From Omphalotus guepiniiformis (Eukaryota; Basidiomycota; Agaricomycetes; Agaricales; Omphalotaceae): 64,000 nt of DNA. The notes beneath the pieces were generated by a model, which was given only the letters and a program-made list of their open reading frames with translations, searched no databases and was not told the DNA's origin. The position numbers were made by a program, and so were the translations under genes. Location: the NCBI GenBank assembly GCA_028554645.1, contig JAQOOI010000018.1:248001-312000 (forward strand), in the 5' to 3' direction. This document shows positions 14,027 through 64,000 of the stretch, one piece after another; the first letter of the stretch is position 1; each line of letters opens with the position of its first letter.

Positions 14027-14769
14027 TGCTTCTGAACCCTGGGAGGTTGCGCTTTTATATTTTTTCCTCTTTGGCGGTGTCGCGACTAAAAGCAGTCTAG
14101 GCTTGAAATCATGCAGATTGAGAAAGATTTTGGTTGTTCAAACATTGGAAACTGAACAATAAGAACTAGAGTTTACCCAGACTGCTAGTTGAAACATGGG
14201 AACACACTCAGTTACTCAAGCCTGTGTATAGAGTTAGCTACAGTACATGATAGGGTACTTAGCAACTGTGACCAATGGGATCATGGAGAGAGATACTAGT
14301 TTTGCCTCTCACTTTGTATTGGAGTACCAATGTTCCATGCTAAGTTGAGTTGGTCAGACCCACCCTCTAAAGACTAGAGACTCTCATGAGTGTTGTTTGA
14401 TTGTAATCCAAGGGAATGATGGAAGTTACAATTCAATCTGAGAAACATCTAAGTCCACTGGACTATCTAACTCCAGCTGGTCTTGCTAACTCAGGTTGGC
14501 TGTAAAGACTGAATGCTGAGAGTGCAGACAATCTTGTATTGTTCTGACCAGAGAAATATGTTGTACATTTGATACTATGTTTAGGATGGTGTTACAACTT
14601 GTGAACCACCTCAGTCTGTTGGCTGAAGAGGAAAATTCCTCTAAGTCATTTCTGAAGAATGGAGTTAGATACTCAAGTTATCCTATCATGAAGCTAGATG
14701 TTGATTCTGGAGTATCCCTCTGAAATGTAACATCTAACTGAGTGATACCCTGAACCCAGACACCCAAAT
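14027..14769. other. Intergenic, no gene seen
   Basis: No ORF over 60 codons and no repeat match noticed within the window. Lies between an unrecognised relic and the right 1.1-kb inverted repeat. Confidence 0.4.
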
Positions 14770-15882: not shown

Positions 15883-17206
15883 TCGGAATGGAGTCAAAGA
15901 TGTAATCTCGACTTTGTTCGTCGTAAGTATCCTCATCTTCGTTCACCATATGTTCTAGCTGTTCCACAGTAAGGTCTATGAGGTCTAGCACGTTCGTAGG
16001 TAGGTCTATAGGCTCATATCTTGCAAAATGCGGCAGTACACGAAAAGCAGCAATCTTTTCTTTAAGTACAGAGCCATCCATTTCTGCAATAATGTAGGCA
16101 CCACCCTTAGTTCGTCTGATGACAATCATAGGTCCTCTATATCTTGGATACATCTTCCTGTCCAAGCTCTTCTCAATTTGAGTGTTTCGAACTTGTACTA
16201 GAGTTCCAGGTTTGAAATCATAGTCTTTTATTACATGTTCATAATCTTGTTCAAACTTCTTCATAGTTCTTCTTTTCTCTTCGTCGACCCTGGAAATCAT
16301 GTTCATAACATGAGTTCTATGCTTTGCCAAGGCTCTAGCCCTGTAGCTGATCAATTCTTCGTAAGTAAGGACTCTATCTGGTACCTCTACCAACCAAGTT
16401 GATTCTATAAGGTCTAGAGGCAGTATTGGTTCTGCTCCAGTTACTAAGAAGTAAGGAGAACATCCAAATCCTCTTCTAGTTGTTACTCTGTCTGCCCAAA
16501 GCACATGTTTGAGAAACCAGTACCAACGTTTAAGATCACCTCCCGTTGCTTTTACTAAAGCTTGACGGATATCAAAGTGTGCTCTTTCAATCTTTCCATT
16601 AGCTTGAGAATTATAGGCTGAGATACAAATCCCTTTAATCCCATACTTCTCTTCCAGCCATTTCAACATTGCAATCATGCTTCTAGCATTATCAATTACC
16701 ACTTCTTGAGGGCAACCCCATCTATGTATTATATCTTCAAAGAACCACTCGCCTAAGGCTCGAGCTGTCTCATCTCTGATTGCTCGTCCCTCTGACCAGG
16801 AAGATAAAGCACATTGACCATGTACAATGTTCTTACAGTCATTACTAGCCGGAGATACTTTGAATACATCCACATGTACCTTCTGGAACAGAGAAGGGAT
16901 GTGAGTAAGGGTAGGTGGGATTTTCAATAGCGCTAGAGCCTGATCTTGACATGTCTGACACGTTTTCACGAACCAGTTGACATCTCGCTCCAGTTCTGGC
17001 CACCAGAACCTCTTTTCTATCACAGCCTTCGTAGCATACATTTCTTTGTGTCCCAAATGATCATGAGCACTATGCAGGATATACATACAATGTTCTTTCT
17101 CAACTATTAGCTGATATTGTCCACCAATTTCCTCATTTCTTCGATACATATGTCCTTTCTTGTTGATGAAGTATCGAGACGCCTTCGAAAGAAATTTCTT
17201 TTGAGC
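15860..17206 (-). pseudogene. Gypsy A integrase
   Basis: This is the open stretch of pol downstream of the last premature stop (17207-17209). It has an HHCC zinc finger (HSAHDHLGHKEM..CQTCQ), then the DDE core: D in VHVDVFKVSP, D in EVVIDNARSM and E in NSQANGKIERAHFDI. A GPY/F-like C-terminal domain follows (KMYPRYRGPMIVIRRTKGG) and an acidic tail ending IPIMCKELD. All three catalytic acidic residues are present, so the integrase domain itself looks complete at about 449 codons. It is only a downstream part of a broken polyprotein. A second subfamily (B) with the same layout is at 59314-60262. Confidence 0.85.
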
Positions 17207-17584
17207 TCAAGCATCCATCCCATCCAGCATATCCAATTCAGGATGCATTAAGAACTCTTTTATTCTCAGTAGCAATCAATCTAGCTCAATCCCTATGGTA
17301 GTTTTATGTTCCTCCATATAAGGATGATCATGTTTCCATTCTTCTGTTGATTCAGGAGCTACTAGAACCTGTGCAAACTGGTCTAGAGTCTTTCCTTGTT
17401 CAAATAGTATGTGTTCTCGCCAGTAGGCGAATCTTTGTTCTTCTTCAATTAATTCTTGAACATCATCTTTGAAGTCTTCCACTGACAAGGCTAGACCCTG
17501 TAATTATCCATCTCTAGAGTCTATCTTATGCTTAAAGTCTTCAAAGTCATAAGGGCCCTGCTCATTCTCATCTTTCTGACGAAA

Positions 17585-19447
17585 TCACAATGGTTCCCCA
17601 TCATCTTCATCTAGATAATCTTCTTCTTCGGCAGGTAATCTCTCTGTTGGTTCACTACCAGGTGGTGGTCTAGATAGTCCATCAGGTCCATGTATAGATC
17701 TCTTGATATGTACCAATTCAAAGTGATACTTTCTTATTTCTTCAATCCAATGATCAATAGTTGCATTTGGGTCACTACTTAGGTTATCTAACATTCCTTT
17801 TATGTAGCTAGCATCTGTTTCTACAGTTAGATCCCTACAACCATAAGTTTGGTAGTAAGTATGGGCTAGCACGAGCTTGAGCCCATATAACTCTCTCTTA
17901 GGCTGTGAGAACCTTGCTTCATGTTCATTTGATGTTATAGATCCAAAGTAGTTATAAAACTTCTTTTTAGGATCATTAGGATCTCTTTGGTATAAATAAT
18001 ATCCTACAGCCATTCATGATGTATCCACTGCTAGAGTAATGCCGCTAGACAACAAATAATCAATTGATTTCAATGCAGGAGCATTTCTAATGCCTTCTTT
18101 TAATAGCTCGACAGCTTCTAACTCTTTTTCTCTTATCTCAAAGGGAACTTGTGAACTAGTCAACCTCGTGAGGGGTCTAGCCTTCTCTGCATAGTCTTTA
18201 ATGAACATCCTGAGTTGTCCTGCAGTCCCTAAGAATGATTTAACATGTGTACGCTTCGTCCATTGAGTTGCATCCCATGACAAAATGGTCTTAGCCATCT
18301 TTTCTTCAGGTAATTCACCCTCATACGGGACTCTATGTCCCACAACATTTTCTTCTGTGCAGCAAATGAATGCTTTAGGTCCTGAGAAGGTTCCTCCAGC
18401 ATGTTTCATTTGTTGAACAACTCTATTCATATTCTGCATGTGTTCCCATACAAATCTTCTAATTCCACTGTTCTCAGGAATTGTTTTGTATCCTCCACCT
18501 TCAAGCTCATACCTAGTAGACGGTCCTTTCACTGGAACATTATCTATATAGGGTCTCGTTATGTGTGGAATTTCTTCTTTCAATATATAAGTGATATCAT
18601 CATGATAGATTGGCACTGAGTTAGTCCAACCCATTGGCAGTTTCACAAGTTGGTGAGGGCCAAAAGGGGTTTGAAACATCGTCAAATCCCTAGATCCCTC
18701 ATCTACAAGCCTTTCATCATAGCCTACAAATACATCTAGCAGTCCAATACAAGATCTGCCTGCAAAGCTTCTAGCTATGTCAGCTGTAGTAGAAGGTATG
18801 CCTGAATGTTGAATTGTGACCTTATTTAACGGTTCTAGACTGTGTACTAGCCGCAAACTTTTGCCATCTTTCTTCAACACACAGAACCATCTTGATCTGT
18901 AAGAGGAGCTTGAGGGTTCGTAGACCCCAGAATCAATCTTATCTTTAATTATTTTGCATACATCTCCATAAATCCCGGGTGGAATAGGTATATTCCTCTC
19001 AACCCATGGAGTATGTGGTATAACAGGAAATTTAACCGGTGGAAGGAACTCTGTCTTGAAAGTTCCTCCTTCTGAAGCTTCCCATGTGAAAGCTTTTTCT
19101 TGTACCTTCATTAAGTGATGTACTAGCTTCATTTCTTCAGGCCATAAGAAGTCTTCATCATGATTCTTCTCAATAATAGCTTTTCTTTCTTCATTATAAT
19201 GTTCCCCAGGTGTGAAGTCCGGTGGATTCGGTAACAAGGTCGGCATCCCTTCTAGCGGGTCACCAGTTATGTGCCTTTCTATCCTGAACTCCTCTGGAAG
19301 CGTAGTTTTTACTGGTTTCACTTTTATTGCCACAGGTTTATACTTACTGCCGAATACTGCAAACAGTTTTCGAAATCTAGCCTTACTTCCACGAGGTAGG
19401 ACCCTACAGTGTAAGTTTGACATTCGCCAAACCATTTTCTCAGTTCA
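17585..19447 (-). pseudogene. Gypsy A reverse transcriptase and RNase H
   Basis: RT runs from 19435 to 18014 and includes IIKDKIDSGVYEPSSSSYRS, WFCVLKKDGKSLRLVHSLEP, FGPHQLVKLPMGWTNSVPIY and the catalytic box RPYIDNVPVKGP. The second Asp of the usual YxDD box is Asn here. The codon before the next segment is TGA (18014-18016) between AVDTS and MAVGYYLY. RNase H follows in the same frame (18013-17585): the SQPKRELYGLKLVLAHTYYQ segment with catalytic Glu, DLTVETDASYIKG with Asp, and PDGLSRPPPG near the end. A TGA at 19445-19447 interrupts the N-terminal side. No indels are needed inside this block, so decay here is by point mutation. Confidence 0.85.
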
Positions 19448-19885
19448 AGCAGCCGTATTGAATACAGTAGCTGCCTCAAGACCCTCATATGCAGGTCTCG
19501 AAGGTACTTTCTCATCCTGTACCTTAGCTTCACGCCAAGTATAATATACCTTGCAATTATCTTCAGTTATTTCTTTATTCATGTAGCTTTTAAGCATAAT
19601 GGCAGCCTTGGGATCACTCTCTTCAATGCTAGCTCGAGATGCATATACATATGCCTCAGCCTTCTCATTATCAGAGAATGTCTCCTTATCAGGCAGTCTA
19701 TACCCAGTTATTTCATATCTACCATCTTTTCCTAGGCCAATACTTACAGCAACCTCTCCCTGATGGCCTGTCAGATCTTCGAGGACTGAAAATTTCCATC
19801 TTGTGGACTTCTTTCCTCTTCTGCAGCTTTGGGTAGCTGGTGTAAGTTTTTCATCTTCTTCAGGCTTCGGTCCAATGCCTCTGCC

Positions 19886-21122
19886 TCATTTATATGTTCA
19901 CATTGTGCAGGTCATGCCAGAATTAGGGTCTCGAATTGTTAATTCTTGATTTCCATCCTTATTTGTCTTAATATTACTTTCTGTTAAAACATTAAAGGGT
20001 CTTCCCAACAGAACTTTATATGGAGCTTTATCCATCACATGAATCTGCATATAAACAACTATTTCACCAAAGGTAAACAGTACGTTCCTAGCTAGACCCC
20101 TGGTTGGGCTTAGCTGTCCACTAGCACTTTGCATATGGATAACAGTCTTCGGATCCCAGGCTAGACCTAGTCCCATTGCTATATCCGTGTCCATTGATAC
20201 TATTTGAGACTCACTATCAAGTATACACTCGACTGGCCCTTGTTTATTTAATATCAGGAAAGATAACTCGCAGACTATCACTTGGTCTGGCTACAATGAT
20301 AATCTTCCCTCGTTCAGACGGCAGAACATCTTCGAGATATTGTTCTACAACATCTACATAGACTAAAAATCATGTTTGCAAGCCACTCAAGCCTTCGAGG
20401 ACCTGTACAAAGCAGTCTCCCCATGCTAGATCATCAATATCCACCACTTGGGTGTCATATGGCAAAGAGATAGAATTCTCAGGTAGATTAGTGTCTTCTG
20501 GGTTCTCCTCATCTCTAATCTCTTGTACAAATGCCTTTAGAGGCCTCTTATATACTCGACTATTCTTAGTCTTTCTATTCAATATTTTCTGCAAAGTAGG
20601 GGAAGTAGCAATTACTTCTTCCATACTTATAGGTATTTCACTCTTTAAAATCTTCGTTGCAACTTCTTCAGCAACTCCCGGCCTGTACACACCACTTTGT
20701 AGTTTGTATTCAGGTCCCTTAGGCAAATCAAATGTTACTTTCTTCTTCGCCAAGCCTCGAGACTCTTCTATATCCACACTAGGTGTTCTAGCAGTCACTG
20801 GGGACGTTTCTAGACCCTCTTTTGGTGGTTGGATCTGTCTCTCAATAGGCTTTATGTTATCAAATGGTCTTTTATTTAAGTTTTTTGTTTCCAGAACGTT
20901 ATGCGTGGGCACCTCTTTGCCTAAATCAGGCTCAGGGGTTTCCAACGACTTATCCATCATGTTTATGGGTTTATACAAGTGTCGATTAAAGTTCTTATGA
21001 CACTCTAGCACCACTTCAAGGCATCTAGACGTCTTTCTAGCATTATCTTCCTCTAGAGCTTTGCTGAGAACAGGGCTAGGTAACTTCTTTGCACCAACTA
21101 GCACCTGTTTAAGCTCCTTCAT
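19886..21122 (-). pseudogene. Gypsy A linker and retropepsin-like protease
   Basis: The frame 21122-20370 encodes a Lys/Glu-rich linker (..DNARKTSRCLEVVLECHKNF..). It continues past a TGA at 20370-20372 into YVDVVEQYLEDVLPSERGKI and VARPSDSLRV. A one-base shift near 20240-20280 leads into the protease: GPVECILDSESQIVSMDTDI, then VLLGRPFNVLTE. The usual catalytic Asp-Ser/Thr-Gly is Asp-Ser-Glu here (DSES), so the domain is probably inactive even without the stops. TGA codons at 19898 and 19886 follow. The linker role is inferred from position. Confidence 0.7.
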
Positions 21123-22866
21123 CGAAAGTATTAGTTTTTCCTCCAGGAGTCTTTATAGACACTTGTCCATCAGACAAGGCCTTATACTCAACTCCCATCC
21201 TTTCTAGCTGTTCAAGCTCTTGTACAGCCAATGTATCAACTTCATTATTCCCCATTCCAAGGGGGCTAGCTTCGTGTAGCTGCACCTGGTATACATTTGG
21301 CATGGATTCTACTTCATATAAGAACTGATCTGTGTGGACTTCTATATCCCATCCCTTCTCTTTTGCAATTTTCTCAATCTTTTCCTTTCTAGTTTCTTTA
21401 TCACCTTCACTTATCCAAGGAAGTAGTGAACCATCCTTTAGTTCCCATCTATTCCTTGCATTTCGCTTCATCCATCTCTTACTTACAAAGTGATGTTGAG
21501 CTGAACAGTCTTGTGAACCATGTCCTCTGCCTCCACACATGAAACAAGCTAGATCACAGGCAGGCATAACTCTACTCATGTCCAGAAGTCCTCTGGTAGG
21601 CATAGAAGACATACCAACATTCGTCGAAGACGCTAGACCCATATTTCCAGTGTTTCTACTTGACATTTGTACCATCCTTATCAAGGACTTCATCATCTCT
21701 TGATTCTGGTTTGTCATAGTGTCTAGCTTCTGGTGAATGGTCTTAATTTTTGTCTCGTTATCATCTACTATGTACGAAATCTTCTGTTCCCACTCATTCT
21801 GGGCTTCTTCCTGCTTTATAGCAGTTAACCTGTCAGTCATAGATGGTCAGCTCGAGAGGGGTCTAGCTCCAGTGTTTATGACACCTGGTAGGCTTCAACT
21901 CACTCCTACATTGTATAATTTCTCAGGGGGAATAGCACATACAGCTTTTGCAGCTTTTACCACTTGCTCTAGAGTCCAAGGATCATCTCTTTGATGAACC
22001 CCTTCTCCAGTACCATTAGTTGATAATTTCCGAATAACTCTCTTTCTAAACTGTTCTTCTAGAGTAGCTAGATATCCTTGTACTGCCTCAAAGTTTGAGA
22101 TGACAGCATGTCCACTTATTAACTTCTTTGCTTCAATCTGATACGCCCTCGAGAAGGCCAAAAGCTTCTCTAGTTGACCAGATGGCACTAGCATGTACTT
22201 CTCAATTACACTCATGAGCCTCTGCTTCGAGCCATATCTGTCCTTAACACTAGAATCCGGATAGCAGTCAAGCAGGGCAACTCTAAATATTTCCCAATCA
22301 TTTCCTGAAGCTGCATCAAGTGTAGCTAGCTCTTTTCTCGTCTCATAAGTCATGTATTTCAAGGCTAGATGGATCTTTGCTATCTCAGATCTGATATTCA
22401 AAGTCCTAAAGATTTCCTCTAAGTCCTCAAGCCATCCTGCAAGTTTCTCAGGACGATCTCTATCAAATATGAGTGCCTTTGAGACTTTCGGTAACTGCTC
22501 AGTTTGTACAGGATTTCGATTTGCTGCAGCCTCATCAATATTTGGTTGTCTCTGCTGCTGTGGGTTTTGCCCTTGACCAGCAGGTCTAGCAGTAGCATTA
22601 TTTCCTTCATCAGGCATGTTTGTATAATCAGAGAATTCAGGACTTGGTAGTCTTATATCTCCTATAACTTCGTTTGTTCCTCTATACCTCTCTCTAGACA
22701 GAGGCAAGTTGTTTCGAACAGGGATTCTACTACGACGAGGGGGTCTAGACTCGAATATTAATTCTTCTTGTCCAGCCTCATGGGAATTTTGTGTAGTTCT
22801 AGGTTTTCCACGATGGCTAGAGTCACTAATCTTTGCAAGTAACTCGGATTTGAAGTAGAATTCCTT
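21109..22866 (-). pseudogene. Gypsy A gag
   Basis: The open frame begins around 22866 with no clear ATG, so the start codon may be lost. It reads through an Arg-rich segment (SRPPRRSRIPVRNNLP) and a capsid-like helical domain (WLEDLEEIFRTLNIRSEIAK..LLDCYPDSSVKDRYGSKQRL). Two TGA codons at 21895-21897 and 21847-21849 interrupt the frame. The second half has a CCHC zinc knuckle, CFMCGGRGHGSQDC (C-x2-C-x4-H-x4-C), near 21545-21504. It ends with TAA at 21109-21111. The next frame overlaps it by 14 bp (+1), which could be the original gag-pol frameshift site or a later indel. Confidence 0.8.
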
Positions 22867-23007
22867 GAAGTGTTATGCAAATGTACAATTTACACTTCGA
22901 GAGGCAAATCAAATTGTCAATTCAATTTGCTGAGGTCAAAAGACAGCGATATTTAGACACAGGGGTCTTTCAAGAGTAAAACTCGATATAATTGTTTTCT
23001 GAAACTA

Positions 23008-30314: not shown

Positions 30315-30388
30315 TGGCATGAGCTGGGATTGAACCAGCAACACCCAGCACACATACCTGGTGCTCTAACCAACTGAGCTATCATGCC
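30315..30388 (-). tRNA. tRNA-like sequence (pseudo-tRNA or SINE head)
   Basis: The minus strand folds into a 74-nt cloverleaf. The acceptor pairs GGCATGA with TCATGCC (7/7), the D-stem GCTC with GAGC, and the T-stem GCTGG with CCAGC around TTCAATC. A-box- and B-box-like elements are present (TAGCTCAGTTGGTTAGAGC and GGTTCAATCC). The anticodon stem has a G.G mismatch at 31:39. The loop TATGTGT lacks the conserved U33, so the anticodon (formally UGU) is doubtful. I call it tRNA-like, not a confident functional tRNA. Confidence 0.5.
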
Positions 30389-52170: not shown

Positions 52171-53255
52171 CTAGCTTGGAGAGGTCACAGACGTGCTTGA
52201 AACAGAATTTGAGTTTGCTGCAAACCTTGCAGGGGCAGCCAATGGCGCCGTCTGAGCCCAGAAATCAGAGGTGACAGTGAAAAAGAATTCAGAAAGAGTA
52301 CTTACCGATAGTAACACACCCCTTCAAGGTTAGATCAATAGGGTCTTTTTGGGTCCCTTTATTGGTGAAGACTAACACTTTGTCATCTTCGTCCTCTAAA
52401 GCAGAGTGTTAAAATAGCTAAGGAGAGGGATTTCCCTAACGTTACCTATGTCCTTGAACTGGCCGGTTCGGTCGTAGACGATTTGGCCTGAGGATCCGCG
52501 TCGAGTGTCAGCCTCAAACCTGTTGAGGTGTGCAATAAGGGAGGACACATTCTTTGCAGCCCCATCCTCCGATGCATTGGGTGCCTCAAGGGCTTTAAAA
52601 AACCAGAGATTAGCTACAGAATGAATCCAAGGGAAGGGTTTACCTTCGCTATCAGTAACGGGACTAGGACAGGGTGTAGTTACAATCCTATACAATTCTG
52701 TAAAGGGGGGGGGTCAAAAGAATATAGCTTGCAAGGAAAGGGAGTTGCCTACCATCCACACTGGGGCTGGGGTAATACAAAGTTAGAATGGTTCCCGCTC
52801 CACGGGCCCGCACATCATTGAAACAGACTAAAAGATAAGGTCAGTCAAGGGGAAACTCTGAGGTTAGAAACAGCTTACTGTGATAGGCGCAACGTTGGGT
52901 TGGACGAGTCTGTCCGCACCCTGCGAACGACTTGCCAGCGTAAACACTTTTTGAGGCGCTGGAAACCTGCCAGGTACGGGCCTGGATCTCGCAAAAGCAC
53001 CGTAATTCTATGGTGTTGTCCTCAACCAAGGTCCATATCTGGTTTGCAGGTAACAACCTTCCAATGTAGTCGGTTGGGCTGCGCAGTGTTCAGTGGAAAT
53101 CTGGGCAGGCACACTGCTGAAAACTTACTAGGGAACGTTCTGTAACTCCCGCTGGATTGTGGTAGTGATGTTCGGGGCCTTCTTTTGCTGAGCTCGGAGA
53201 ATTTGGTGATAAAAGAAGGGGTAAGGGCTAGAGCCTCATTTGCGGGCGCTCTCAC
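52171..53255 (-). CDS. Gene with GRF-like zinc finger, convergent with the TET/JBP-like gene
   Basis: Reading from ATG at 53255: MRAPANEALALTPSFITKFS, then, after an uncertain splice near 53050, ELRCFCEIQARTWQVSSASK and KSFAGCGQTRPTQRCAYH. The spacing C-x-C..GK-x-F..C..C recalls GRF-type zinc fingers. Next exons read VCFNDVRARGAGTILTLYYP SPSVD, then VTTPCPSPVTDSEGKPFPWI HSVANLWFFKAL.., IVYDRTGQFKDI, EDEDDKVLVFTNKGTQKDPI DLTLKGC and a Ser/Thr-rich end stopping at 52171. Introns are about 50-70 bp with GTAAC/GTAAG/GTAGG donors. The body has no family I can name. Its 3' end lies about 165 bp from that of the dioxygenase gene. A joint role is inference from position. No premature stop is evident. 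Confidence 0.5.
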
Positions 53256-53277
53256 GAGTGGAGGTTGCTCGTTTCAC

Positions 53278-54441
53278 GGTGATGAGAATGATACGGGGAA
53301 ATGAACTGCTAAAGGGCTAATGAACAAAAACCCAAAAACAACCAAAACAACCAAGTCACTCAAAAGGTGTGAGTCTGAGGGGGCGTTGTCGAAGGTTCTG
53401 CACGACCAAACTTATGGCTTCTTTATTAGAACTTTATTTCTTTATCACAAGAACTTTATAGTTGAGCTTTTGAAATGCACTAAGGCAAAAAGTAGCACAA
53501 GACGGTTTTGAACAAGACAGGTATTCACTGCACAATCACAACCAATTGACCACAAGATCAAACAACCAATTCCAATAACACAACCAGTTCAATTCAACCA
53601 ACAATGATCTTTATACAATATCACAATAAACACCGGACTATAAACAGACCAGGGCAACTTTATGTTTTTGGTAGGATTTCCCTTCACAGGCATGATTCAC
53701 GTTATAAAGACAATTCCCAGTGACCCTGTGACTCTATGGTACTCTCCTGGATTTTCTCTCTCCAAGTTACTGCCCTTTTATACATACTGCCAGTCCAAAA
53801 TTAATAAAAACGGAAATTATAGCTAAACTGTCCTGTTTTATATATATACCTATATCCGTGTATGTAGGTTGTAAGTATCTGTGTCAAGTATGTCCATTAT
53901 TACTTGTTATAGATCTATTTTATGAGGCAAACCTCAAAAATGCGTTTTAATTCCATTATTTTTATTGTAGGCAATATCCAGCCCCTTTATTTCATTTTTA
54001 CGGATTTCCTTGACATTTCTCAGGCATCCGGGTTCCATAGGATGAATCACCTGATAGAAATTATACCCCTCAAAGTATCACATTGTTTTGTCAAAGGAAC
54101 TCCTTCAATTCAGTAGTATTCCGAGAAATTTTACTGATCGAGTTTTTACACCTCCTAACCGGTTTCTTGTCAAGCCATTTTTCACTGGACAATTAATTGA
54201 AGCAAATTTCCTCGATCAACTTTTGTTCCTGGCGATTAATTAAGGAGTAAATACCCCAAAACTATTCTAGATCCATTATTTCGACTCTATTTCGCGTTCC
54301 ACCCATTTTTAGTTTCCACCAGGTTTTTATTCTTTATTGACTGGAGGAAGATGTTCCCCTAATAGTTATATGATGCAATTGACGTTGTGATGTCAGAGTT
54401 CTCGTTACGAGATTGGGTGAGTCTGATTCAACAGTGGATGG
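53278..54441 (-). repeat. Repeat C, copy 2 (probable gypsy LTR)
   Basis: Matches 11404-12416 and is the longer version, with TCGAAGGTTCTGCACGACC near 53387 and about 115 bp at 53477-53610 that copy 1 lacks. No gag follows on the left, so here it stands alone. It abuts the LTR-like block at 54442-54657. Confidence 0.65.
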
Positions 54442-54657
54442 CTATTGAACAATTCTCTACATCACAACTGTACTGACTAGCCTAGAACCTTGATACACAT
54501 ATTGTACCGTAGGTAATAGAACATGCTTTATTACTCAAATCACAACACATTTTGATTGACAAGGCGGACACTTTCAACCCTCTACATCCCTCACTGCAAA
54601 TGCCTAAAATGATTAATCACCTGGCTTTTAATGCAGGTGCCAAAAATCAGCGCATCA
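54442..54657 (-). repeat. Probable LTR start of the element carrying the gene at 55.2 kb
   Basis: On the minus strand it starts TGATGCGCTGATTTTTGG directly after the purine motif at 54658-54671, the position of a 3' LTR. It resembles the start of the family-A LTR (TGTTGCGCTGAAAACG). The rest is cut off by repeat C at 54441. Confidence 0.5.
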
Positions 54658-54671
54658 TCTCCCCCAAACTA
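54658..54671 (-). other. Polypurine-tract-like motif 1
   Basis: Plus strand TCTCCCCCAAACTA, minus strand TAGTTTGGGGGAGA followed by TGATGCGC. Same motif as at 57637 and 61754. Confidence 0.6.
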
Positions 54672-55224
54672 AAATCTTGACCGTTCCCGGTCAATTCTTC
54701 AGCCAATCTACTGACTTTATTTTATAGTACAGCAGTTGTTAAGAGTTCAATAAAATTTTCCTTCAACATTATTCACCTGGTCAATATCCCATTATCCAAA
54801 CACCGGATCGAAAGCCGCTATGGCACGATCACGTGACTTTTTGCCGAACTGCTGGAACTGAATACAAACAGCTTTGGCCTCATGAACTCAGAAGTGTGTT
54901 TTCCTAACTCGCTCATTTTAAAGTTTTTTCTGGAATATCGGCCCTCAACACGAGCTGTTTCCCATCATAGGTGAGTCATTATTACCTTATACGTTGTCAT
55001 ATCTTTTTATTCACATCTTTTTGCTTTTCACATTCGTCACTTCATTATATATGGCTTCAACTTTGTTTTTTCTTTCTTCATATGATTCCTATCCCTCCGA
55101 CTCTCAGAATTTACAGAACGAGCAGGAACTTGGTTCTCTCCCTTCTGACCTTCATTCTACTGCTTTCAATTGTTCTATCCTTCTTCTTTGTTGGTTGTAT
55201 TCTCTCCCTACTTCGTTTGCTCCA

Positions 55225-57243
55225 ATGGCTCCCAAGAAAGATGGCTCAGGTAACAAGAAGAAATGTGACTCTGGGCGAACGACTTCCACAGGGACGTCCA
55301 CTATAGCTCCTCGTAAGAAAGCTCCCCCCGTCTTTTCACCGGTTTCTCTTCCTCGCGTGCAGCACATCGCGCTCCAAGAGGCTATGGTTGCGATCCAGCG
55401 CCATGTCTCAGAGGTTTATATCCGCCTCTTCAAAAAAGACAATGATCCTAGCTTCCGAGTTGCTCATCTAATCACGCCCTTGGATAACGCTTATACCGCC
55501 TGGGTAAGATTCATTATGTTTTATTCAATATATTTCCTTACTAAGGTCTTTATCACTTTCTAGCACACATTCTATGGAGACTGGACTTCTGACAATGATT
55601 TTCCTTACTACGCGAGATGTTTTTGGTGGTCAATCTCTCGTCTAGCTTGGCGTCTACAAGATACCAGCCTTTCTGACTTCGAAACTCTCGAACCGATGGT
55701 AATTCCCAAGGCAATGCTTCGTGAGCTAAAAGCGCTCAAGTTCAAGGTTCGTTTTTCTCATATCCTTCTTTTTGTATCGTTACTTACGACTCTTTTTCAG
55801 CCTTTTCCTTTATCTCGTCAACTCCCTCCCGTCGAATCCTATCGTTTTCAAAACAAGAACTCCTTTGACTTCTCCTCCCTTCTGAAATTCGATGTCTCGG
55901 CGCTTCCTGAACTTCCGTCCAAAGCCTCTCCAAAAAAACTCAAAGAGTCGCCTCCCATTGAAGAATCTTCTGACGACGATGACAATTTTGACGACGAAGA
56001 AGAGGAAGAGGACAAGTTGGAGTCTCTGCCAAAGAAAAAGGTGAAGCGTGTTTCTTCCCCAGCACTTCGATTGCAGATTCAAACTTGGTCGATGACTTCG
56101 ATTCCTACATTGACTCGTTCCGGTGTTTCACGTGGTCGAGGTCATCCCAAAAAGGTCAAACCCGAGGTAGGTATATTTATTCAATCCTTTCATTAACATT
56201 ATGTTTACTAACTAATCCCATTTCTAGCTAGGAAACGGTTGAGGTTAGCGCTGGCAAAGACGACGAGGTAGTCGAAACCATTACTGTCAACCCCTACAGA
56301 ATTACATACACTACCAATGCAGTAAGTTCCACATTATATCTTTATTTTTGTTTCTTAACTGTTTTCTTTAGCCAACCGGCAGCAAGAAATCCTTTATTAG
56401 AGATTCACGCCTCGCCACCTCCGCAGCTACGATTCCCTTCAATTTCGTTGATCCTACTGGCTTACGACACAAGTTCAAGGACCTCGTCACCGTCAATCGG
56501 TCTCTCCAAGGTTACAGCTTGAACCCCATCTGTGCTGGATGCCTAGCCGGCAATCTCAGTCAGCCGTGTGTATGGCGTGGAGAGGACAACAAATGTAGCA
56601 TCTGCGAGAAATGGAAACGACCTTGTTCTTTTCAATATCCGCTCGACAGTATCACAAAGGTGCGCGACCTTGCTTTCCAGGAAGGACGTCAACACCCTGC
56701 TGGTACGTAGTCCATTTTTAATCTTTTTTGTTCCTTCTAATTTCGTTTTATTAGCGATCAACACACACATTTCGAATTTACTACAACTTCACGCTGAGTT
56801 CGACAACCTCATTCGACAATCAAATCAAACTCGCAAGTCCGCCAAACGTTTGAGTTCATTGATTCAAACTGAACAACAGCGTCTTCGCGAATCGTGTGTA
56901 GATGCTCACAGCGTTCTTCGTTCTCTTGAGCCGGATGCGGAATTCTTAGTGAATAAAGGCCAGATGGAAATGTTAGCCGCGGCTCTCGGGTGGCAAGTCG
57001 ACGACTTTCGGCTTCATAGTGCAATCAGCACCAACGACCAAGGCGAACCGATAGCCGTAGATCCCGCGTTTTTAGACAAGGCTAGAGAAACTGCAAATCA
57101 AAGTGCAGGAGTTGGGGAATTGCAGGAGGTAAGTCCAGAAGCTTAGGCACTGGACTTACACTTTCTATTCATTCTATTCACCCCAGCTCCTTCTTTTGAA
57201 CACATTTATCTCTGCTTTTCTTGACGGTCTTATTTCGTTGTAG
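55225..57243 (+). CDS. Seven-exon gene with Zn2Cys6-like cysteine cluster, antisense-type accessory gene
   Basis: Exons are 55225-55503, 55564-55746, 55801-56166, 56232-56321, 56372-56702, 56755-57128 and 57187-57243 (1680 nt, 559 codons plus stop). All introns are GT-AG and 50-65 bp, and the frame stays open throughout. N-terminus basic and Ser/Thr-rich (MAPKKDGSGNKKK), then a conserved globular part (RVQHIALQEAMVAIQRHVSE..HTFYGDWTSDNDFPYYARCF). Then an acidic stretch (EESSDDDDNFDDEEEEEDK) and basic KKKVKR, and cysteines CAGC..QPC..NKCSICEKWKRPC around residues 358-392 (C-x2-C-x8-C-x8-C-x2-C-x6-C). A coiled tail follows. It is a paralog of the gene at 62262. The spacing is near Zn2Cys6 (C-x2-C-x6-C..) but with 8 in the first gap. 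Probably nuclear and DNA-binding, inferred. A polypurine-like motif lies about 550 bp upstream. Confidence 0.7.
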
Positions 57244-57636
57244 GTCGCCACTCATCAAAACAAACACTTTATACGAACATTATCTTTACCATACCGCTGT
57301 TTGTACCTAAGTTTAAGTTCTACCTCTTGCTTGTAGACACTTAGGGTACTAAAATTATCATTGTTCTTGTGTCTTCTTTTGCTTATTATGAGTGAATTTA
57401 AAACCTTAAGATTCTAAGAGATCGAAGTTGCAGCTGACTTTCTGAAGTCCGGCTGAAATTCAAAATCAAAGATTGACGCTCAGCGCTTAAATTCCATATT
57501 AAGAAATGACCACAACATTCAATATTACATTCTTTTTACTTCGTTTTTCCTTCTATTCTTTATGTTTCTTTTAATTTGAGGGACGAATATACACCGGATA
57601 ATAAATATATTCATAATTTTCCGTAACTTGTCACCC
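57244..57636. other. AT-rich block, probable 3' LTR region of gypsy B
   Basis: No gene seen. On the minus strand TGACAAGTTACGG begins directly after the purine motif at 57637, where the 3' LTR of element B should start. I cannot see the other LTR boundary because no second copy is in the window. Confidence 0.4.
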
Positions 57637-57650
57637 TCTCCCCCAAACCA
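57637..57650 (-). other. Polypurine-tract-like motif 2 (gypsy B)
   Basis: Plus TCTCCCCCAAACCA, minus TGGTTTGGGGGAGA followed by GGGTGACAAG. It lies at the 3' side of the gypsy B integrase with the antisense gene in between. Confidence 0.65.
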
Positions 57651-57840
57651 AAAATTTCAGCGCCCCCACTGAACATTATACTCCTAAGAGAATTTGAAGA
57701 CAATTTTTCGACCTCAAAAATTTTCAGCCAGGTACAATACATTTTTCAGCTATAAAAGAACAAATGTAAGGATCATAAATTGCATCGAACCAACATTCAT
57801 TCATTCTATAACTCGTTATCACAAGCTCTTACTTTCTCAA

Positions 57841-59157
57841 TGGCCCCTACTCCCTCGTTTATCAAAGAAGACTGGCTTGCTTTGCTGGAACTTCGTCGCG
57901 GCACCTTTGACCGTGCTCGTGCTCATAACGTTCCCGATGGAGAGATGTTCCAATTTGCTAAGACACTTTGTGGCTTCTTGGTACGTTATTTCATTTTTAA
58001 TAATCGTCCGGCGTTTAATAATAAATCGAGTTTAAGGTTAAACCCCTCAATATGGCTACTACAGCTGCTGACGACGAACTCTTCAAGAAGTTTGAAGACA
58101 ACGTCACTGCCCTTCAGGTGGTTATGGCGGCTCATCCTCAAATGTCGCCTCTTCGTTCTGTAGCCGGACTTCAGAAACACCTTGACCGTATGGTTCAAGA
58201 ATGTCTCAAGAATGCCGCTGCTGCTGCTGAAGCAGTCGCTAAGGCTAAGGAAGAAGGTAACAATTGAAAATGCAAGGTACAAATATCTATCGGACTTATA
58301 TTCATTATCTAACTTTATTCCAGGGCAAGGAAACTCCCAAGTCAAAGGCTGTTTGTGACGACGACGACAATGTTGAAGTCATTATTACCCCTCCTCTCGA
58401 CAAAACTGTCGGTGAAGCACTTGTAAGTAATTTCCACCCGGTAATTAATACTTTGTACTAACATTTTGTACACTTTGTTCTTACAGATGACTGACGGTAC
58501 CAAGGACTCTAGCAGCGCTAAAGAAGCTAGTGCCATCAAGGATCTTACTGTAAGTCACTCATTATTTTCAACCGGACATATATTAATTCATTACTAGTTC
58601 CGTAAGGCAGAACTTATCGCGAACCAACACGCCGTTGTAAGCATGCCATACTCAGCAGTTCCTGAATTGGATCAATCCTCTGGCGCGTACAGGAAGGCTA
58701 ACCACTACATTTTGAAGGGCTTTGCGATATCCGGCCAAAAACGACTTAAGTTGGAAACAGCTGTTTCAAATCTTAGTGAAGAAACTGACTGTAAGTACAC
58801 ACTTAATAGTATTCAATATACCTTCTGACATTATTCTTTATAGTTGAGAAGGCCCTACGTGATATGGCTCACACCAGTGTTCTTAAGACACTTGTGTTCG
58901 TTCCATACTACGATTACGACCAACTCACGCTCGAATCTCTTAAGGCTATACACAATTGCCTTCGTACCGAGTGTTCTACCCTCGCACACATTGTTCAAAC
59001 CAACAGCGCTCGTTATCGTGACATGCAGAAGCTAGCAGACAATCTTTCCTTAGTTATTAAGAAGAAGTCCATTAAAGGTAGTTCCGATGTTGATGTTGAT
59101 GACTCCATGGACTCTGTAGATTCTACCTCTACCACTGACATGACTACTGATGAGTAG
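57841..59157 (+). CDS. Six-exon gene lying antisense in gypsy element B
   Basis: Exons are 57841-57980, 58037-58256, 58324-58422, 58487-58549, 58598-58790 and 58844-59157 (1029 nt, 342 codons plus stop). All junctions are GT-AG and keep the frame. It starts MAPTPSFIKEDWLALLELRR. The middle is Ala- and Lys-rich (CLKNAAAAAEAVAKAKEE), then comes an acidic piece (DDDDNVEVIITPP). The second half (YSAVPELDQSSGAYRKANHY ILKGF..) ends in helices (ALRDMAHTSVLKTLVFVPYY..LESLKAIHNCLRTECSTL) and a Ser/Asp/Thr-rich tail. No cysteine cluster and no known domain. It lies between the integrase stop (59314, minus) and the purine motif at 57650. Transcription would oppose gag-pol. No inactivating change seen. 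Function unknown. Confidence 0.7.
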
Positions 59158-59313
59158 TTCCCCTGGTACCACTTTATTTACAATGTTCTTTTAAATGTCC
59201 GGCATATATTATATATATCTAAACACTGTCCTTACTATACATTATGTTCATACTCAGAGTCGTGTAGTGACTAGATGACTTTGTAATGAAGGATACTAGT
59301 TGCAACTTCAAGT

Positions 59314-60262
59314 TCAAGTCTGTCTTTTTGACCTGGTTTTGACTCCTTTGTCCCAATCTGGTTCCTCATTGTCTCCTAAGTTGTCTCCAAGATCCGAATC
59401 ACTGTCTTCTTCATCAGAATCGTCCCCTTCAAGCCTAAGATTGGGTATGGCATCAAAAATATAGTCTGTATTTTTGACCAAGTCTTTATCTTCATCCTCA
59501 ATCATAGCTTCCAATTGCTTACTATCCAAGTCTATTAGTTCATGAATATTGTCTGGCAATTGTATAGGTTCGTATCTGGCTGCATGTGGTAGGACTCTAA
59601 ATGCTGCAACTTTTTCTTTGAGCACTGATCCATCCATTTCTGCAATAACATATGATCCACCTTTTGTCCTTCTAATGACAATCATGGGACCCTTATATCT
59701 TGGATACATCTTTCTGTCTAAACTCTTCTCAATCTGAGTATTCCTGACTTGAACCAGAGTTCCTGGTTTAAAGTCATAATTCTTTATAGTATTTCCATAT
59801 TCTTGTTCAAACTTTATCAATGCTTTTCTTTTGTTTTCATCTACTCTTTCCCTCATTTCATTCACATGAGTTCTATGCTTAGCTAGAGCTTGTGCTCTAA
59901 ATCCAAGTAATTCTTCATGAGTCAGAACTCTGTCTGGAGGTTTAACCAACCAAGTTGATTCCACAATATCCAAAGGTAGTATTGGCTCTGCCCCAGTAAC
60001 TATGAAGTATGGAGAACATCCAAGACCGCTTCTAACAGTCACTTTATCTGCCCAAAAGACATGTTTCAGAAACCAGTACCATCTCTTCAAATCTCCACCA
60101 GTTGCTTTTGCCAAAGCAGTTCTGATATCAAAATGAGCTCTTTCTATCTTCCCATTGGCTTGAGAATTGTATGGAGATATAGTAATACCCTTTATACCAT
60201 ACTTCTCTTCCAACCATCTCAACATTGTTCTCATAGCTGGGGCATTATCAGTGATAACGTTA
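59314..60262 (-). pseudogene. Gypsy B integrase, C-terminal two thirds
   Basis: The minus strand opens with INVITDNAPAMRTMLRWLEE, containing the second catalytic Asp (TDN), then SPYNSQANGKIERAHFDIRT with the Glu, and GPMIVIRRTKGGSYVIAEMD of the C-terminal domain. It ends in an acidic tail (DDSDEEDSDSDLGDN) and KTRSKRQT. It has no stops or frameshifts over about 316 codons. It is closely similar to the integrase of element A but a distinct subfamily. Upstream of 60262 the gene is replaced by the LTR at 60261-61753, so zinc finger, first Asp and the rest of pol are missing. Confidence 0.85.
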
Positions 60263-61753
60263 ATAGCAGCGTAATGAGTACTCTAAGACGTAGGAACTCG
60301 TCTAAACTCAAAGGTTGCCTTGTAAAAGCGAGTGTAGTCTGGCGTTGGCAAAGATTCCGCACGCAGAAAACTGACTAAAGTCGAGCTAGACTGTTGGAAA
60401 GACTAACTGAACTGTAAGATCACCGTCTAGACCCTTCGACGAGTACCAGAAACAGCAAACAGACAGACACAGACAGACAGACACAGACAGACAGACACAG
60501 ACAGACAGACAGACAGACAGACAGTTCAAACACAACAGATGTTCAGATATTTAGCACTCTATTAAAGCACTGCAATTCCTAATAGTCCGCCTCTACCAGC
60601 TCGAAGAACCGGGGCCTGACGTTCACAATCAAGAGGCCTTCTGCGATTTAACGCTCTAGAAGATACGTAAAGTTCTCCAATTTGGCGGGCAGTCGTAACC
60701 TGGGGCGCTCGACCCTATACATGACAGTATATGTACTCTACTGCTTGTAAGTATTTCATAAATAGATAGAAAACTGAGTGGAGTAATTAAAAGGAACAGA
60801 GGGATAACATCGAGTATAAAATGGATATAAACAGAAACAATATGACTGAGTTGGGTAAGTAGGCACGTCTAGAGGGTAATTATGTGCAGTTCTTGGGTAT
60901 ATATGTGTAAGTATTATGTTTTAGTGATGTTTTTGGTACATCTAGACCCTTCTTATCATGCGCTCGAGCCATTCTAAACGAACTACTCCTATGCATTTCG
61001 TTATTATTCATCTTCGTAACTGTTTTACAGTGTACTTATAGGGGCGCCGAGGGCAGTTTCTAGTCATTTATCCCGTCGGGCTTCCGTATTTTCTCCTATT
61101 TCGACATCTAGACCCCATAGCACCTCGTAGATATACCAATATCCAGCGCTCGAAGGTCAATTCTGTCATTACTTTACTAATAAGTTATTATACAGTCATC
61201 GAGACTGATCATTTTCATAGCTTTGACCATCTAGTATCTCGGAACGGAATCGTCGATCATATATTTCCGATCATAAAGCGTTATCTCCAGTATATCATCA
61301 ATCTGCAGGTTCTAGGAGGTCGGCTAAGTTCGAACAAACCATTTTGATGGCTCGGCGATACCTCTAGCTTTGTCCTTTCGACATTATCGAGGCTCATGAG
61401 GCTATTACGCCTGTGTGTGTGTAGTTTCTTCCTTCCTAAGTCCCGTGGATTACACAGATACTTAAATAGCGACTTCCAGACGAAGGGCTCTTTGCCAGGC
61501 AGGGTGGGTCTGACCATACTGTACAGTCTCGCAGCAGGTAGTTACTTCGCCGAAGGTCTAGAGGCATATCAGCCATAAGGTCTTGATGCATACTCGTACA
61601 TCGTAGTCCTTTCACTTCGAGCCTTTAACTATTCGTGTTCTATGTTTTAGCTAGCACTATGGGACATAGCCTAGCCCTTTATTCCCATCATATTCACAGT
61701 AGAAATCGTTTAATTTCAGGTATTTCAGGTGTGTATGCGTTTTCAGCGCAACA
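60261..61753 (-). repeat. Family-A LTR (about 1.49 kb), inserted in gypsy B integrase
   Basis: Matches 23027-24417 over its length, with an extra block of about 105 bp at about 60732-60836. On the minus strand it starts TGTTGCGCTGAAAACG at 61753. The purine motif lies directly upstream (61754-61767), so this is probably a 3' LTR whose element body extends to the right. Its other end falls within the integrase B codons next to INVITDN. Confidence 0.75.
60459..60524 (+). repeat. (CAGA)n microsatellite in LTR
   Basis: The same CAGA/CACAGA tract as at 23228-23289, in the second LTR copy, with one more interruption. Confidence 0.85.
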
Positions 61754-61767
61754 TCTCCCCCAAACCA
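61754..61767 (-). other. Polypurine-tract-like motif 3
   Basis: Plus TCTCCCCCAAACCA, minus TGGTTTGGGGGAGA, directly followed by the LTR start TGTTGCGC. This junction is the best evidence in the window that the motif is a retroelement polypurine tract. Confidence 0.75.
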
Positions 61768-62261
61768 AATCTAGACCGTCCCCGGTCTGGTGATCGGTCA
61801 GTCATACACCCAAAGATACATTCTAAAGCTTCGCAGACAGCCTGTTGATTATATAATACTTATTCACACACATCTCAGAGTTCGCCGAAGCAGTGGTACA
61901 CTGTTCATTGCTTTTTGCCGGTCTATGCCGATCATCAAACTTCAAACTCCGACCAAAATACTCTCGGCCAGTTGTTTGCCTTCGGCAATTGCCGTAGGTT
62001 CTTTTCAGGCAAGTGACTTTCCGTCTCTTTTCCTCTTTCACATTTCTTATTCAGTTTCTTGCTTCTCTATTCTTTCTTTTCACGCATCTCTCAGCCTTTC
62101 ACTGGTCCGTGCGCCGTGGGAACGTGGTCAGGTGAGTCGTTCCATAAGTAAACGGACTTCAACTTTTTCACGCCCATTCTTCCTTTCTCTCTATTTTTCA
62201 CTCAGAGTGGCTCTAGCCTTCTGTTTTTCTCTATACATACTTGTTCTTTTCTTTTCTTCTA

Positions 62262-64000
62262 ATGGCGCGAACTACCGGCAAAGCTTCCAAAGGGAAGGGC
62301 AAAGCAGCCTCTTCTTCTCAAATTTCGGCAGTGGCCAAGAAAACTCGAGCCGGTCGAAAGACCGCGCAGATCAACCCTCACGAACAAGCCAATGAAGTCA
62401 TCGCATGTATTGTCGACGTCTATCGTCGTTACTTTGATAAACCACGAAAGAATCCCCCCAAGGTCTCAGAAATGACCAAGGCCGTGGAAAGTGCCACTCC
62501 CTTCATGGTATGTTGTATTTCTTATAGTTTTAATCTTTCATTCTTACATTTTCTCTTCTAGGATACTCTCTTTGAGCACGTCGACTTCGACATCGAGGAT
62601 TTCTGTCCGCATGTGCGCCCGGTGTGGCTAGCTTTAGTGCGACTTTGCAACCCCCTCGAATCTCGACTCCCATCTCTTCACAAGACTGGTTGGTATATCT
62701 CGAAGGACGATCGACAGGAGAAACATAGTCTCGAGCCTGTAAGTCCTTATTCCACCGTAATCTTTTTAATCTTATTCAATATAATTTCCTAGTTTCACGA
62801 CTTCGATACCATCCTCGGCGACGATTGTGGCGACGACGATACCGTTCTTAGCAACTCAGAGGATGAGGTCCTCGAGTCTGACGACGAGTCCGTCCAAGTC
62901 AAGCCTGAGGTTCGTTTTCTTCTTCCTATTCCCTTCAAATTTCTTTCTTATATCCTTTCATATTCTAGCCTGTTCTGACTTCGAAAAAGCGAGCGCTCGA
63001 GCTGCTAGAAGACGACGACGACATGGATCTCTTCTCTTTTAAGAAGCCTCGCGCGTCCACTCCTTCCAAAACACTCAAGACTGGTCCACCCGTTCGCGCA
63101 GTGAAGCCCAAACCGAAGCCCAAGCCTAAGGCAAAGGCCCCGACTCCCAAAGAGCCATCTCCTGTTGCTAGCGAAAGGTCGCCGACCCCTGCTCCTGCTT
63201 CATCAGCGAGGGCTGGTCCTTCTCATCAGGTCTCCGAGGCCGGCCTCTTCACACATCCTGCTAGCGACACGGTCTTCAACCTTGCCGACTTGCTCCATGC
63301 AACTCGAACCATCGACGCAGTAAGTCTCTTTCTTATTTATTTTATTACTCTTTCATTTATCTTTTATAGCTCACTGGCAGCTTGCCATGTACGCGATGTA
63401 CCGCAGCTCACGCAGCAGAGAAGTGTGTCCCGCCCGAAATACAGAGCACCTCCTACAAATGCGCCGTCTGCTTCAAAAGCAGGCAACCTTGTTCATGGAC
63501 CCTGACGCCGGCTCGTGCCCTCGAGATGCGAAATACGATCTACGGGTTGGCTCGTCAAGGTTCTCATAGTAAGTTTAATCATTTATTTCTTTTTATTTAA
63601 CATCTTTTCTCATTTCCTCCTTATTCAGACCTCGGCGCAGAAGTTATTGGTCTCGTCGAGAAGATCTCTGTATACGACCAACTTCGCCGCAGCGTCTTGG
63701 ACCTCGCCGACAACGCCAACAAGCTTCGCGAGTCCATCGAGCGGGACCAGGAGCACCTTCGTGGTTCAGTCACCGATCCTACCCTTCTTTTCAACATTCT
63801 TCATCGTAACGACCCTTCATTCAAGGACGAAATCGAAGATTTGAAGATGATAGGCGCGGGCTTGGGCTGGGACATGTCGGTTTTGGATCGAGACTCGAGC
63901 TTGGTGAAAACGGAGACTGGTTTTCAGATCCAACCGAGTTCGTCGCGCCTTCCCCTCGACTTCTCTAAATCCGACACTCGCAGCACCATCGAGCGCATGG
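62262..64000 (+). CDS. Multi-exon gene with six-cysteine cluster, paralog of the 55.2-kb gene, runs off the window
   Basis: Exons are 62262-62507, 62562-62738, 62793-62909, 62969-63319, 63370-63568 and 63629 to beyond the window edge, with introns of 50-60 bp and an open frame. It starts MARTTGKASKGKGKAA, then a globular part (QANEVIACIVDVYRRYFDKP..DTLFEHVDFDIEDFCPHVRP) and an acidic region (DDCGDDDTVLSNSEDEVLES). Next come a KPKPKPKPKAK stretch, cysteines CTRCTAAHAAEKC..YKCAVCFKSRQPC (C-x2-C-x8-C-x11-C-x2-C-x6-C) and a coiled tail (KISVYDQLRRSVLDLADNAN). The intron phases 0,0,0,0,1 equal those of the gene at 55225. It lies about 500 bp downstream of polypurine-like motif 3. By analogy with gypsy B the integrase of its host element should lie to the right. 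Confidence 0.7.

What the first reader, a model, noticed from the sequence alone, without database searches (positions are those of the whole stretch)
57637..60262. Intact multi-intron gene carried antisense inside a Ty3/gypsy element
Seen: the minus-strand integrase gene ends at 59314. Next to it lies an undamaged six-exon plus-strand gene (57841-59157), and then a purine tract on the minus strand (57637-57650) followed by a TG start. So the order in element direction is pol, antisense gene, polypurine tract, LTR. Known: some plant gypsy elements carry antisense ORFs between pol and the 3' LTR. Inference: antisense placement lets introns survive, because splicing of the element's own RNA does not remove them. 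All five introns keep the frame, so the gene is or was recently under selection.
Basis: partly seen in the sequence, partly recalled or inferred. Interest (0 to 1): 0.88.

Follow-up and report, generated by a model that had tools for sequence, protein, structure and literature searches.

The report
Retrotransposon with two backwards intron-bearing genes
A family of large fungal retrotransposons carries two genes written backwards and still full of introns, one of them lying between two copies of the signal that starts second-strand DNA synthesis, which suggests how an element copied through RNA can keep and reshuffle genes with introns.

Summary
The antisense multi-exon gene is real and belongs to the element, but the boundaries given are wrong. 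Element E1 (Ty3/Gypsy, 14.7 kb without its insert) ends at an LTR 3 kb further on (53280-54657); a young relative, E2, is nested in its pol from 60261. Between integrase and 3' LTR lie TWO antisense genes: B (57840-59157) and A (55225-57146, open, six cysteines conserved in E2), six exons each. The window's B has an in-frame stop; 15 of 18 best-matching full-span copies are open. B lies beside integrase in 24 of 26 E1-family copies; recognisable B genes occur in three families, and a fourth has an unrelated-looking antisense gene there. dN/dS of B is about 0.15. The polypurine tract at 57637 is an internal copy of the true 3' PPT, paired with it at near-constant spacing in three families and beside a covarying hairpin. 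Gene A has been exchanged between E1 copies, with one breakpoint near the internal PPT. Antisense ORFs (Retand, Grande, Boty) and extra PPTs (Sirevirus, Athila4, Calypso) are known; this combination, with 5-6 introns per gene, I found in no listing: a new variant. One genome, no expression data.

The parts
53280..54657 (-). 3' LTR of element E1 (the element reads on the minus strand)
   Evidence: 97.75% identical to 81725-83102 (window numbering, L038), 29 mismatches and 2 gaps; TSD ACGG on both sides
54658..54671 (-). true 3' polypurine tract (TAGTTTGGGGGAGA), abuts the LTR
54677..54694 (-). hairpin next to the 3' PPT (7-bp stem, loop GGAA in the sense strand)
55225..57146 (+). antisense gene A: exons 55225-55503, 55564-55746, 55801-56166, 56232-56321, 56372-56702, 56755-57146; 546 aa, open; C-x2-C-x8-C-x8-C-x2-C-x6-C
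57637..57652 (-). internal polypurine tract (TTTGGTTTGGGGGAGA), not followed by an LTR
   Evidence: identical over 16 nt to the 3' PPT of E2; paired with a 3' PPT at near-constant spacing in three families
57656..57673 (-). hairpin next to the internal PPT (7-bp stem with one G-U, loop GGGG in the sense strand)
57751..57758 (+). TATA box (TATAAAAG) 89 nt before the ATG of antisense gene B
57840..59157 (+). antisense gene B: exons 57840-57980, 58037-58276, 58324-58422, 58487-58549, 58598-58790, 58844-59157; this copy has an in-frame stop in exon 2
59314..60260 (-). integrase part of E1 pol, cut by the nested element
60261..64000 (-). nested element E2 (60261-75353 in window numbering, 15,093 bp): here its 3' LTR 60261-61753, PPT 61754-61769, hairpin 61772-61789 and the start of its antisense gene A2
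62262..64000 (+). antisense gene A2 of E2: exons 62262-62507, 62562-62738, 62793-62909, 62969-63319, 63370-63568, 63629 on past the window end; 547 aa, open

Best explanation
SHOWN: E1 is a 14.7-kb Ty3/Gypsy element with, in element direction, 5' LTR - PBS - gag - protease - pol (RT, RNase H, integrase) - antisense gene B - hairpin and internal PPT - antisense gene A - hairpin and 3' PPT - 3' LTR. E2 (15.1 kb) has the same order. In family F3 integrase, B and the internal PPT were read and a 3' PPT was found by pattern; its A was not read. In F4 two antisense genes stand in these places, but the last exon of the first shows no likeness to B. INFERRED: A and B are transcribed from their own promoters on the opposite strand, spliced, and translated into nuclear accessory proteins (basic and acidic stretches; in A a six-cysteine, zinc-type motif) that regulate the element's transcription or replication, as is argued for the antisense proteins of Retand and known for HTLV HBZ. 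Their introns survive because the RNA that is reverse transcribed is the sense RNA, in which those introns read backwards and cannot be spliced. The internal PPT is kept as a second start site for plus-strand DNA.
For: LTRs, TSDs, PBS and PPTs of E1 and E2. Uninterrupted sense frames in E2 against 27 introns in five antisense genes. Intron phases 0,0,0,0,1 in A of both E1 and E2 (worked out from the exon lengths) although the proteins are 25% identical; phases 0,0,0,0,0,1 in B2 and B3. dN/dS of B averages 0.153 over 61 pairs with dS above 0.05 among 14 copies, the window's included; A 0.11-0.24 in four of six same-type pairs and pol 0.09-0.12 in four of five pairs. TATA-type boxes 46-111 nt before the ATG of the integrase-side gene in four of four families. 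Six cysteines invariant among the three A exons aligned, from E1 and E2. Internal plus 3' PPT at 13 of 20 E1, 19 of 24 E2 and 26 of 34 F3 copies; spacing 2.90-2.99 kb (E1, E2) or 3.43-3.48 kb (F3) apart from three outliers.
Against: No RNA data: transcription and splicing are read from sequence only. No Pfam family reaches its cut-off for A1, A2 or B1 (B2 and B3 not scanned). The fold of the cysteine exon was poor (pLDDT 46), so 'nuclear regulator' rests on composition and cysteines. dN/dS is higher in some close pairs: A 0.76 (window-L017) and 0.44 (L020-L025), pol 0.32 (L022-L023). F3b (10 copies) shows no internal PPT with these motifs, and the 601-base piece of one copy has no run of five G. 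The F4 gene's last exon does not match the B profile (probability 0.1%).
Confidence: 0.6

Rival explanations
1. The antisense genes matter as RNA, not protein: opposite-strand transcription across the 3' part of the element makes double-stranded RNA that tunes silencing, and the open frames are a by-product.
For: Antisense transcription with a silencing role is discussed for LTR retrotransposons (PMC7264820, passages).
Against: dN/dS near 0.15 for B; 15 of 18 full-span copies open, in a sample biased towards good copies; six invariant cysteines in A.
Confidence: 0.12
2. The internal PPT is not a primer but part of a duplicated antisense promoter: the pyrimidine tract and dyad upstream of both A and B are binding sites, perhaps of protein A.
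For: Each module lies upstream of an antisense gene: 188-203 nt before the B ATG in E1, and with its PPT edge 567 (E1) and 508 nt (E2) before the A ATG (positions). Six-cysteine fungal proteins often bind DNA dyads (recalled).
Against: Within one element the arms of the two hairpins differ while pairing is kept (E1 TTCAGTG and TTGACCG), unlike two sites for one protein. Five of the six main modules have a GNRA-type loop (GGGA or GGAA) in the sense strand; the sixth is GGGG. The internal copy matches the 3' PPT of E2 over 16 nt up to its LTR-side end.
Confidence: 0.3
3. Ordinary gene capture: host genes were picked up, are passengers, and have no role for the element.
For: Multi-exon structure like host genes; no known sequence family; F4 has an unrelated-looking gene in the same place.
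Against: B beside integrase in 24 of 26 E1-family copies and recognisable in three families; purifying selection.
Confidence: 0.06

Closest known systems
Plant Ty3/Gypsy elements with antisense ORFs between pol and 3' LTR (Retand lineage, Grande gene23, RIRE2)
   Same: Place and orientation of the extra genes; proposed nuclear or DNA-binding accessory role (PMC11963269 and PMC7264820, passages)
   Different: Plants. The word 'intron' occurs 0 times in the main text of both papers. Retand ORFs carry TRP28, which A1, A2 and B1 do not reach. Here two multi-intron genes, with a PPT beside each.
Botrytis cinerea Boty-like elements with antisense gene brtn
   Same: A fungal LTR element with an additional antisense gene (Zhao et al. 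2011, seen only as cited in PMC7264820, PMC8365987 and PMC4227169; passages)
   Different: One extra gene is described in what I saw. The original paper was not read, so its exon structure is not compared; Botrytis is an ascomycete (recalled).
HTLV-1 HBZ and related retroviral antisense genes
   Same: An antisense gene whose product is nuclear (PMC11963269, passage); HBZ splicing is recalled
   Different: HBZ has a bZIP domain (recalled) and HTLV an antisense promoter inside the 3' LTR (PMC7264820, passage); A and B have 5-6 introns and no bZIP hit, and B has a TATA box inside the element.
Multiple or internal PPTs: Sireviruses; Athila4 and Calypso; Ty1 and HIV-1
   Same: Extra copies of the PPT upstream of the terminal one; Athila4 and Calypso have one extra PPT in the pol-LTR linker (PMC2829016, passages)
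   Different: 83% of Sirevirus PPTs lie within 0.5 kb of the LTR and the upstream ones lack the inverted repeat. Here one extra PPT lies 2.9-3.5 kb upstream, between two antisense genes, with a hairpin like that of the terminal one. No central PPT is identified in yeast Ty3 (PMC5371799, passage).

Membership tests
Ty3/Gypsy LTR retrotransposon | Two LTRs, TSD, PBS, PPT | tested here: met
Ty3/Gypsy LTR retrotransposon | Domain order protease - RT/RNase H - integrase | tested here: met
   E2 frames in order give Asp_protease_2, RT_RNaseH, Integrase_H2C2; RVT_1 is not listed for E2 at E up to 1, but is precomputed for two close relatives, P0108 and P0118; gag is named by position (zf-CCHC only at E 0.14)
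Retand-type antisense ORF | TRP28 domain PF04195 in the antisense protein | tested here: not met
   no hit for A1, A2 or B1 at E up to 1; B2 and B3 not scanned
Retand-type antisense ORF | Antisense coding region between pol and 3' LTR | tested here: met
Zn2Cys6 fungal transcription factor (PF00172) | Pfam match, and C-x2-C-x6-C-x5-12-C-x2-C-x6-8-C spacing (spacing recalled) | tested here: not met
   no PF00172 hit for A1 or A2 at E up to 1; the second spacing is 8, not 6
Boty brtn antisense gene | Sequence homology to brtn | not testable with these tools
   brtn sequence and Zhao 2011 not seen
Central/internal PPT (Ty1 PPT2, lentiviral cPPT) | Sequence identity with the terminal PPT | tested here: met
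   E1 and E2 internal PPTs share 16 nt with the E2 3' PPT and 12 nt with the E1 3' PPT; the F3 internal tract has one G more than its 3' tract
Central/internal PPT (Ty1 PPT2, lentiviral cPPT) | Plus-strand DNA initiates there | not testable with these tools
   needs mapping of cDNA ends
HBZ-type retroviral antisense gene | bZIP domain (recalled) | tested here: not met
   no bZIP hit for A1, A2 or B1

The most novel reading that the evidence does not exclude
The internal PPT with its hairpin is a second plus-strand start that makes antisense gene A an exchangeable cassette: plus strands started at the internal PPT on one packaged genome are assimilated into another, so that the intron-bearing accessory gene is swapped between element lineages while pol and B stay. 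This would be an intron-preserving, DNA-level gene-shuffling system inside an element that copies through RNA.
Probability: 0.2. Interest if true: 0.88.

Novelty: new variant of a known kind. Interest (0 to 1): 0.7.

Why it matters
Retroelements are expected to lose introns when they copy through spliced RNA. Here two genes with 5-6 introns each are carried by several element families, with the intron phases of A kept between proteins only 25% identical. This is a natural test of the antisense-shelter idea, gives fungi a counterpart to plant and retroviral antisense accessory genes, and ties an accessory gene to an internal PPT and to cassette exchange, all of which can be tested directly.

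Tried and rejected
Considered and rejected or left open: (a) LTR start at 57637: the aligned copies continue past it. (b) A and B as tandem paralogues, suggested by equal intron phases in A1 and B1: profile comparison gives probability 0.5%; not claimed. (c) The F4 gene as a member of B: its last exon gives probability 0.1% against the B profile; its exons were read by eye only. (d) Zn2Cys6 membership of A: no Pfam hit, spacing differs. (e) Relatives elsewhere: A1 and an alignment of three B proteins found nothing at E 0.001 among 7992 and 7998 scored candidates, although the same library holds fungal pol relatives (420 proteins, 120 listed, named ones from Moniliophthora perniciosa and Lentinula edodes). 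A pol alignment found no relative in viral contigs. No Rfam family at gathering score in 53000-64000. PDB hits at E 0.27 or worse. That the host is a basidiomycete is inferred from these pol relatives; no other fungal genome could be searched. (f) Cysteine-exon fold: pLDDT 46, no fold search made. (g) Results that weaken the hairpin: its register was chosen by best pairing; folding energies are ordinary against shuffles (z -0.4 to -2.6 in six of seven, +1.0 in the seventh), and it is in the minimum-energy fold of 5 of 7 modules, not of the E2 3' module nor of L046; in the F3 3' copies the unbroken stem is 4 bp (L046) or 1 bp (L044). The F4 purine tract was picked by eye and is not shown to be a PPT. 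E1 and F3 internal regions share no long exact stretch at the PPT. (h) Literature: ten searches, judged from their listings plus passages of seven papers (also 86), showed no multi-intron antisense gene in an LTR retrotransposon; most subscription papers are not held.

Full report
WHAT IS THERE. The window is C18:248001-312000 of a 42.5-Mb, 80-contig genome. Comparing the region with 20 fetched integrase-bearing loci and with the DNA beyond the window's end gives two nested elements. E1, the element of the finding, reads on the minus strand. Its 3' LTR is 53280-54657 and its 5' LTR 81725-83102 (97.75% identical), flanked by ACGG on both sides; without the insert it is 14,726 bp. E2 (60261-75353, 15,093 bp) sits inside E1 pol; its LTRs differ by one 4-base gap and no substitution, with ACGT on both sides. 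Both have TGGAGCCCACCGCGAGGG after the 5' LTR and TTTGGGGGAGA abutting the 3' LTR. E2 has uninterrupted sense frames of 610, 467 and 1379 aa with protease-, RNase H- and integrase-type Pfam hits; the 610-aa frame is taken as gag by position.

THE ANTISENSE GENES. Between integrase and 3' LTR lie two plus-strand genes. A (55225-57146) was not in the finding; it is open, 546 aa, six exons. E2 has its own A2 (547 aa, six exons) and B2 (337 aa, seven exons). A third family, F3 (integrase about 74% identical; L041), has B3 (342 aa, seven exons). B1, B2 and B3 are 25-28% identical to B1, and a B1 query finds the B of E2-type and F3-type elements at E 1e-7 to 5e-4. A fourth family, F4 (integrase 55%; L043/L048), has a multi-exon antisense gene in the same place and the end of another upstream (by eye), but its last exon does not match the B profile, so it is B by place only. 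The 27 introns of A1, B1, A2, B2 and B3 are all GT-AG, 47-68 nt; 25 of 27 have YTNAY 8-35 nt from the 3' end. Intron phases are 0,0,0,0,1 in A1, A2 and B1 (from exon lengths) and 0,0,0,0,0,1 in B2 and B3. The window's B1 is broken by an in-frame stop in exon 2; of 18 distinct full-span copies read, 15 are open (L029 is the same place as L018; L010, L016, L024 and L028 were left out as interrupted or partial; copies were mostly picked by integrase score).

SELECTION AND LINKAGE. Of 26 E1-family integrases (at least 91% identical) among the 124 matches scored, 24 have B within 1.2 kb. Of 29 E1-type B matches typed, five have no adjacent E1 integrase of that class; one of these lies beside an 87%-identical integrase, four were not inspected, and two short C19 pieces were left out. 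Pairwise dN/dS of B is 0.153 on average (61 pairs with dS above 0.05, from 14 copies of equal length, the window's included). Gene A gives 0.11-0.24 in four of six same-type pairs, 0.44 and 0.76 in the other two; pol gives 0.09-0.12 in four of five pairs, 0.32 in one very close pair.

THE INTERNAL PPT. Between the E1 and E2 intergenic regions the longest shared exact stretch is this tract (19 nt; 20 shuffles reach at most 12), and each shares 16 nt with the E2 3' PPT. Genome counts, with reversed-pattern controls: TRGTTTGGGGGAGA 126 against 0, CTTGGGGGGAGA 41 against 3, TTGGGGGAGATG 127 against 1. For 97 of the 124 integrase matches (those on contigs C1-C71; 27 were dropped because the pattern lists were cut at 100 places), an internal and a 3' site in the right order were found at 13 of 20 E1, 19 of 24 E2, 26 of 34 F3, 0 of 10 F3b, 0 of 4 F4 and 0 of 5 decayed or unplaced copies. 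Integrase-to-internal distances are 1659-1681, 1777-1801 and 1835-1859 bp in E1, E2 and F3 (family labels given by hand from identity and pol length).

THE HAIRPIN. Just 5' of each PPT in the sense strand is a short hairpin whose stem changes while pairing is mostly kept. Six modules (E1 and E2 internal and 3', F3 and F4 internal) pair at 39 of 42 positions against 28.5 when arms are swapped between modules (1 of 719 swaps reaches it); with L046 and L047, 50 of 56 (3 of 40,319); with all ten modules read, 61 of 70 (2 of 100,000 random swaps). Unbroken stems are 5-7 bp in the six (6 or more in five). Random 45-mers of the window hold a stem of at least 5 bp with such a loop in 577 of 40,000 cases, of at least 6 in 231. 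Against this: the register was chosen by best pairing, energies are ordinary, two of seven modules prefer another fold, and the F3 3' stems are weak.

CASSETTE EXCHANGE. Among E1 copies gene A exists in two forms. Window against L020 is 46-77% identical in 150-base bins across A, and 91-99% across B and integrase. Identity rises from 0.80 (57284-57433) through 0.87 to 0.95 at 57584-57733, the bin that holds the internal PPT, and drops at the other end at about the A start codon. The two A proteins are 63% identical with saturated dS; L020 against L022 has dS 2.9 in A, while L012 (same type as L020) against L022 has dS 0.069 in B and 0.044 in pol. So A was replaced as a unit, most simply by recombination, with one breakpoint near the internal PPT.

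HOW IT MOST LIKELY WORKS. Shown: the anatomy, linkage, constraint, paired PPTs and exchange. Inferred: A and B are expressed from opposite-strand promoters (TATA-type box 46-111 nt before the ATG of the integrase-side gene in four of four families), spliced, and make nuclear accessory proteins; A has six cysteines invariant between E1 and E2. Introns persist because only the sense RNA is reverse transcribed. The internal PPT most likely starts plus-strand DNA a second time; a promoter role is the main rival. The boldest reading is that internal priming drives the exchange of the A cassette.

COMPARISON. [quoted passage not shown] multiple PPTs in Sireviruses and one extra PPT in Athila4 and Calypso. 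Papers were seen as passages only. Ten searches listed no LTR retrotransposon with multi-intron antisense genes, or with an internal PPT tied to one. Hence: new variant of a known kind. On re-checking, F4 was moved from 'fourth B family' to 'similar layout'; the confidence was lowered from 0.62 to 0.60 and the interest from 0.72 to 0.70 for that reason.

Noticed in passing
window 55235-57600 against L018-L021 and L025: Gene A exists in two strongly diverged forms in E1 copies that are otherwise 91-99% identical; a cassette exchange.
   Followed up: yes
window 60261-61753 and 73857-75353 (L038): E2 is a very young insertion: its LTRs differ by one 4-base gap only; the LTR holds a CAGACAGA-type tandem repeat near 60460-60525 (by eye).
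   Followed up: partly
window 7060-8593 (minus): Frames that resemble, by eye, the antisense gene of family F4 (L043/L048), so a remnant of another family lies near the window's left end.
   Followed up: no
window 15863-22872 (minus), with 9804-10911 and 14769-15882 as a 95% inverted repeat: Decayed copy that resembles E2 pol and gag by eye; other repeats lie where its antisense genes would be expected.
   Followed up: no
L042 (C38:186350-186950): F3b subfamily: no run of five G where F3 has its internal PPT, although a B-like frame lies beside integrase; one copy read.
   Followed up: partly
L043 and L048 (C14:417380-419700): Family F4: an antisense multi-exon gene in the place of B with no detectable likeness to it, behind a TATA box, with a hairpin of the same kind; possibly another gene in the same slot.
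   Followed up: partly
window 54922-55563: The frame of gene A exon 1 is open upstream, with an in-frame ATG at about 55051, so the A start codon is uncertain.
   Followed up: no
window 30315-30388 (minus): tRNA-Thr, anticodon TGT.
   Followed up: no
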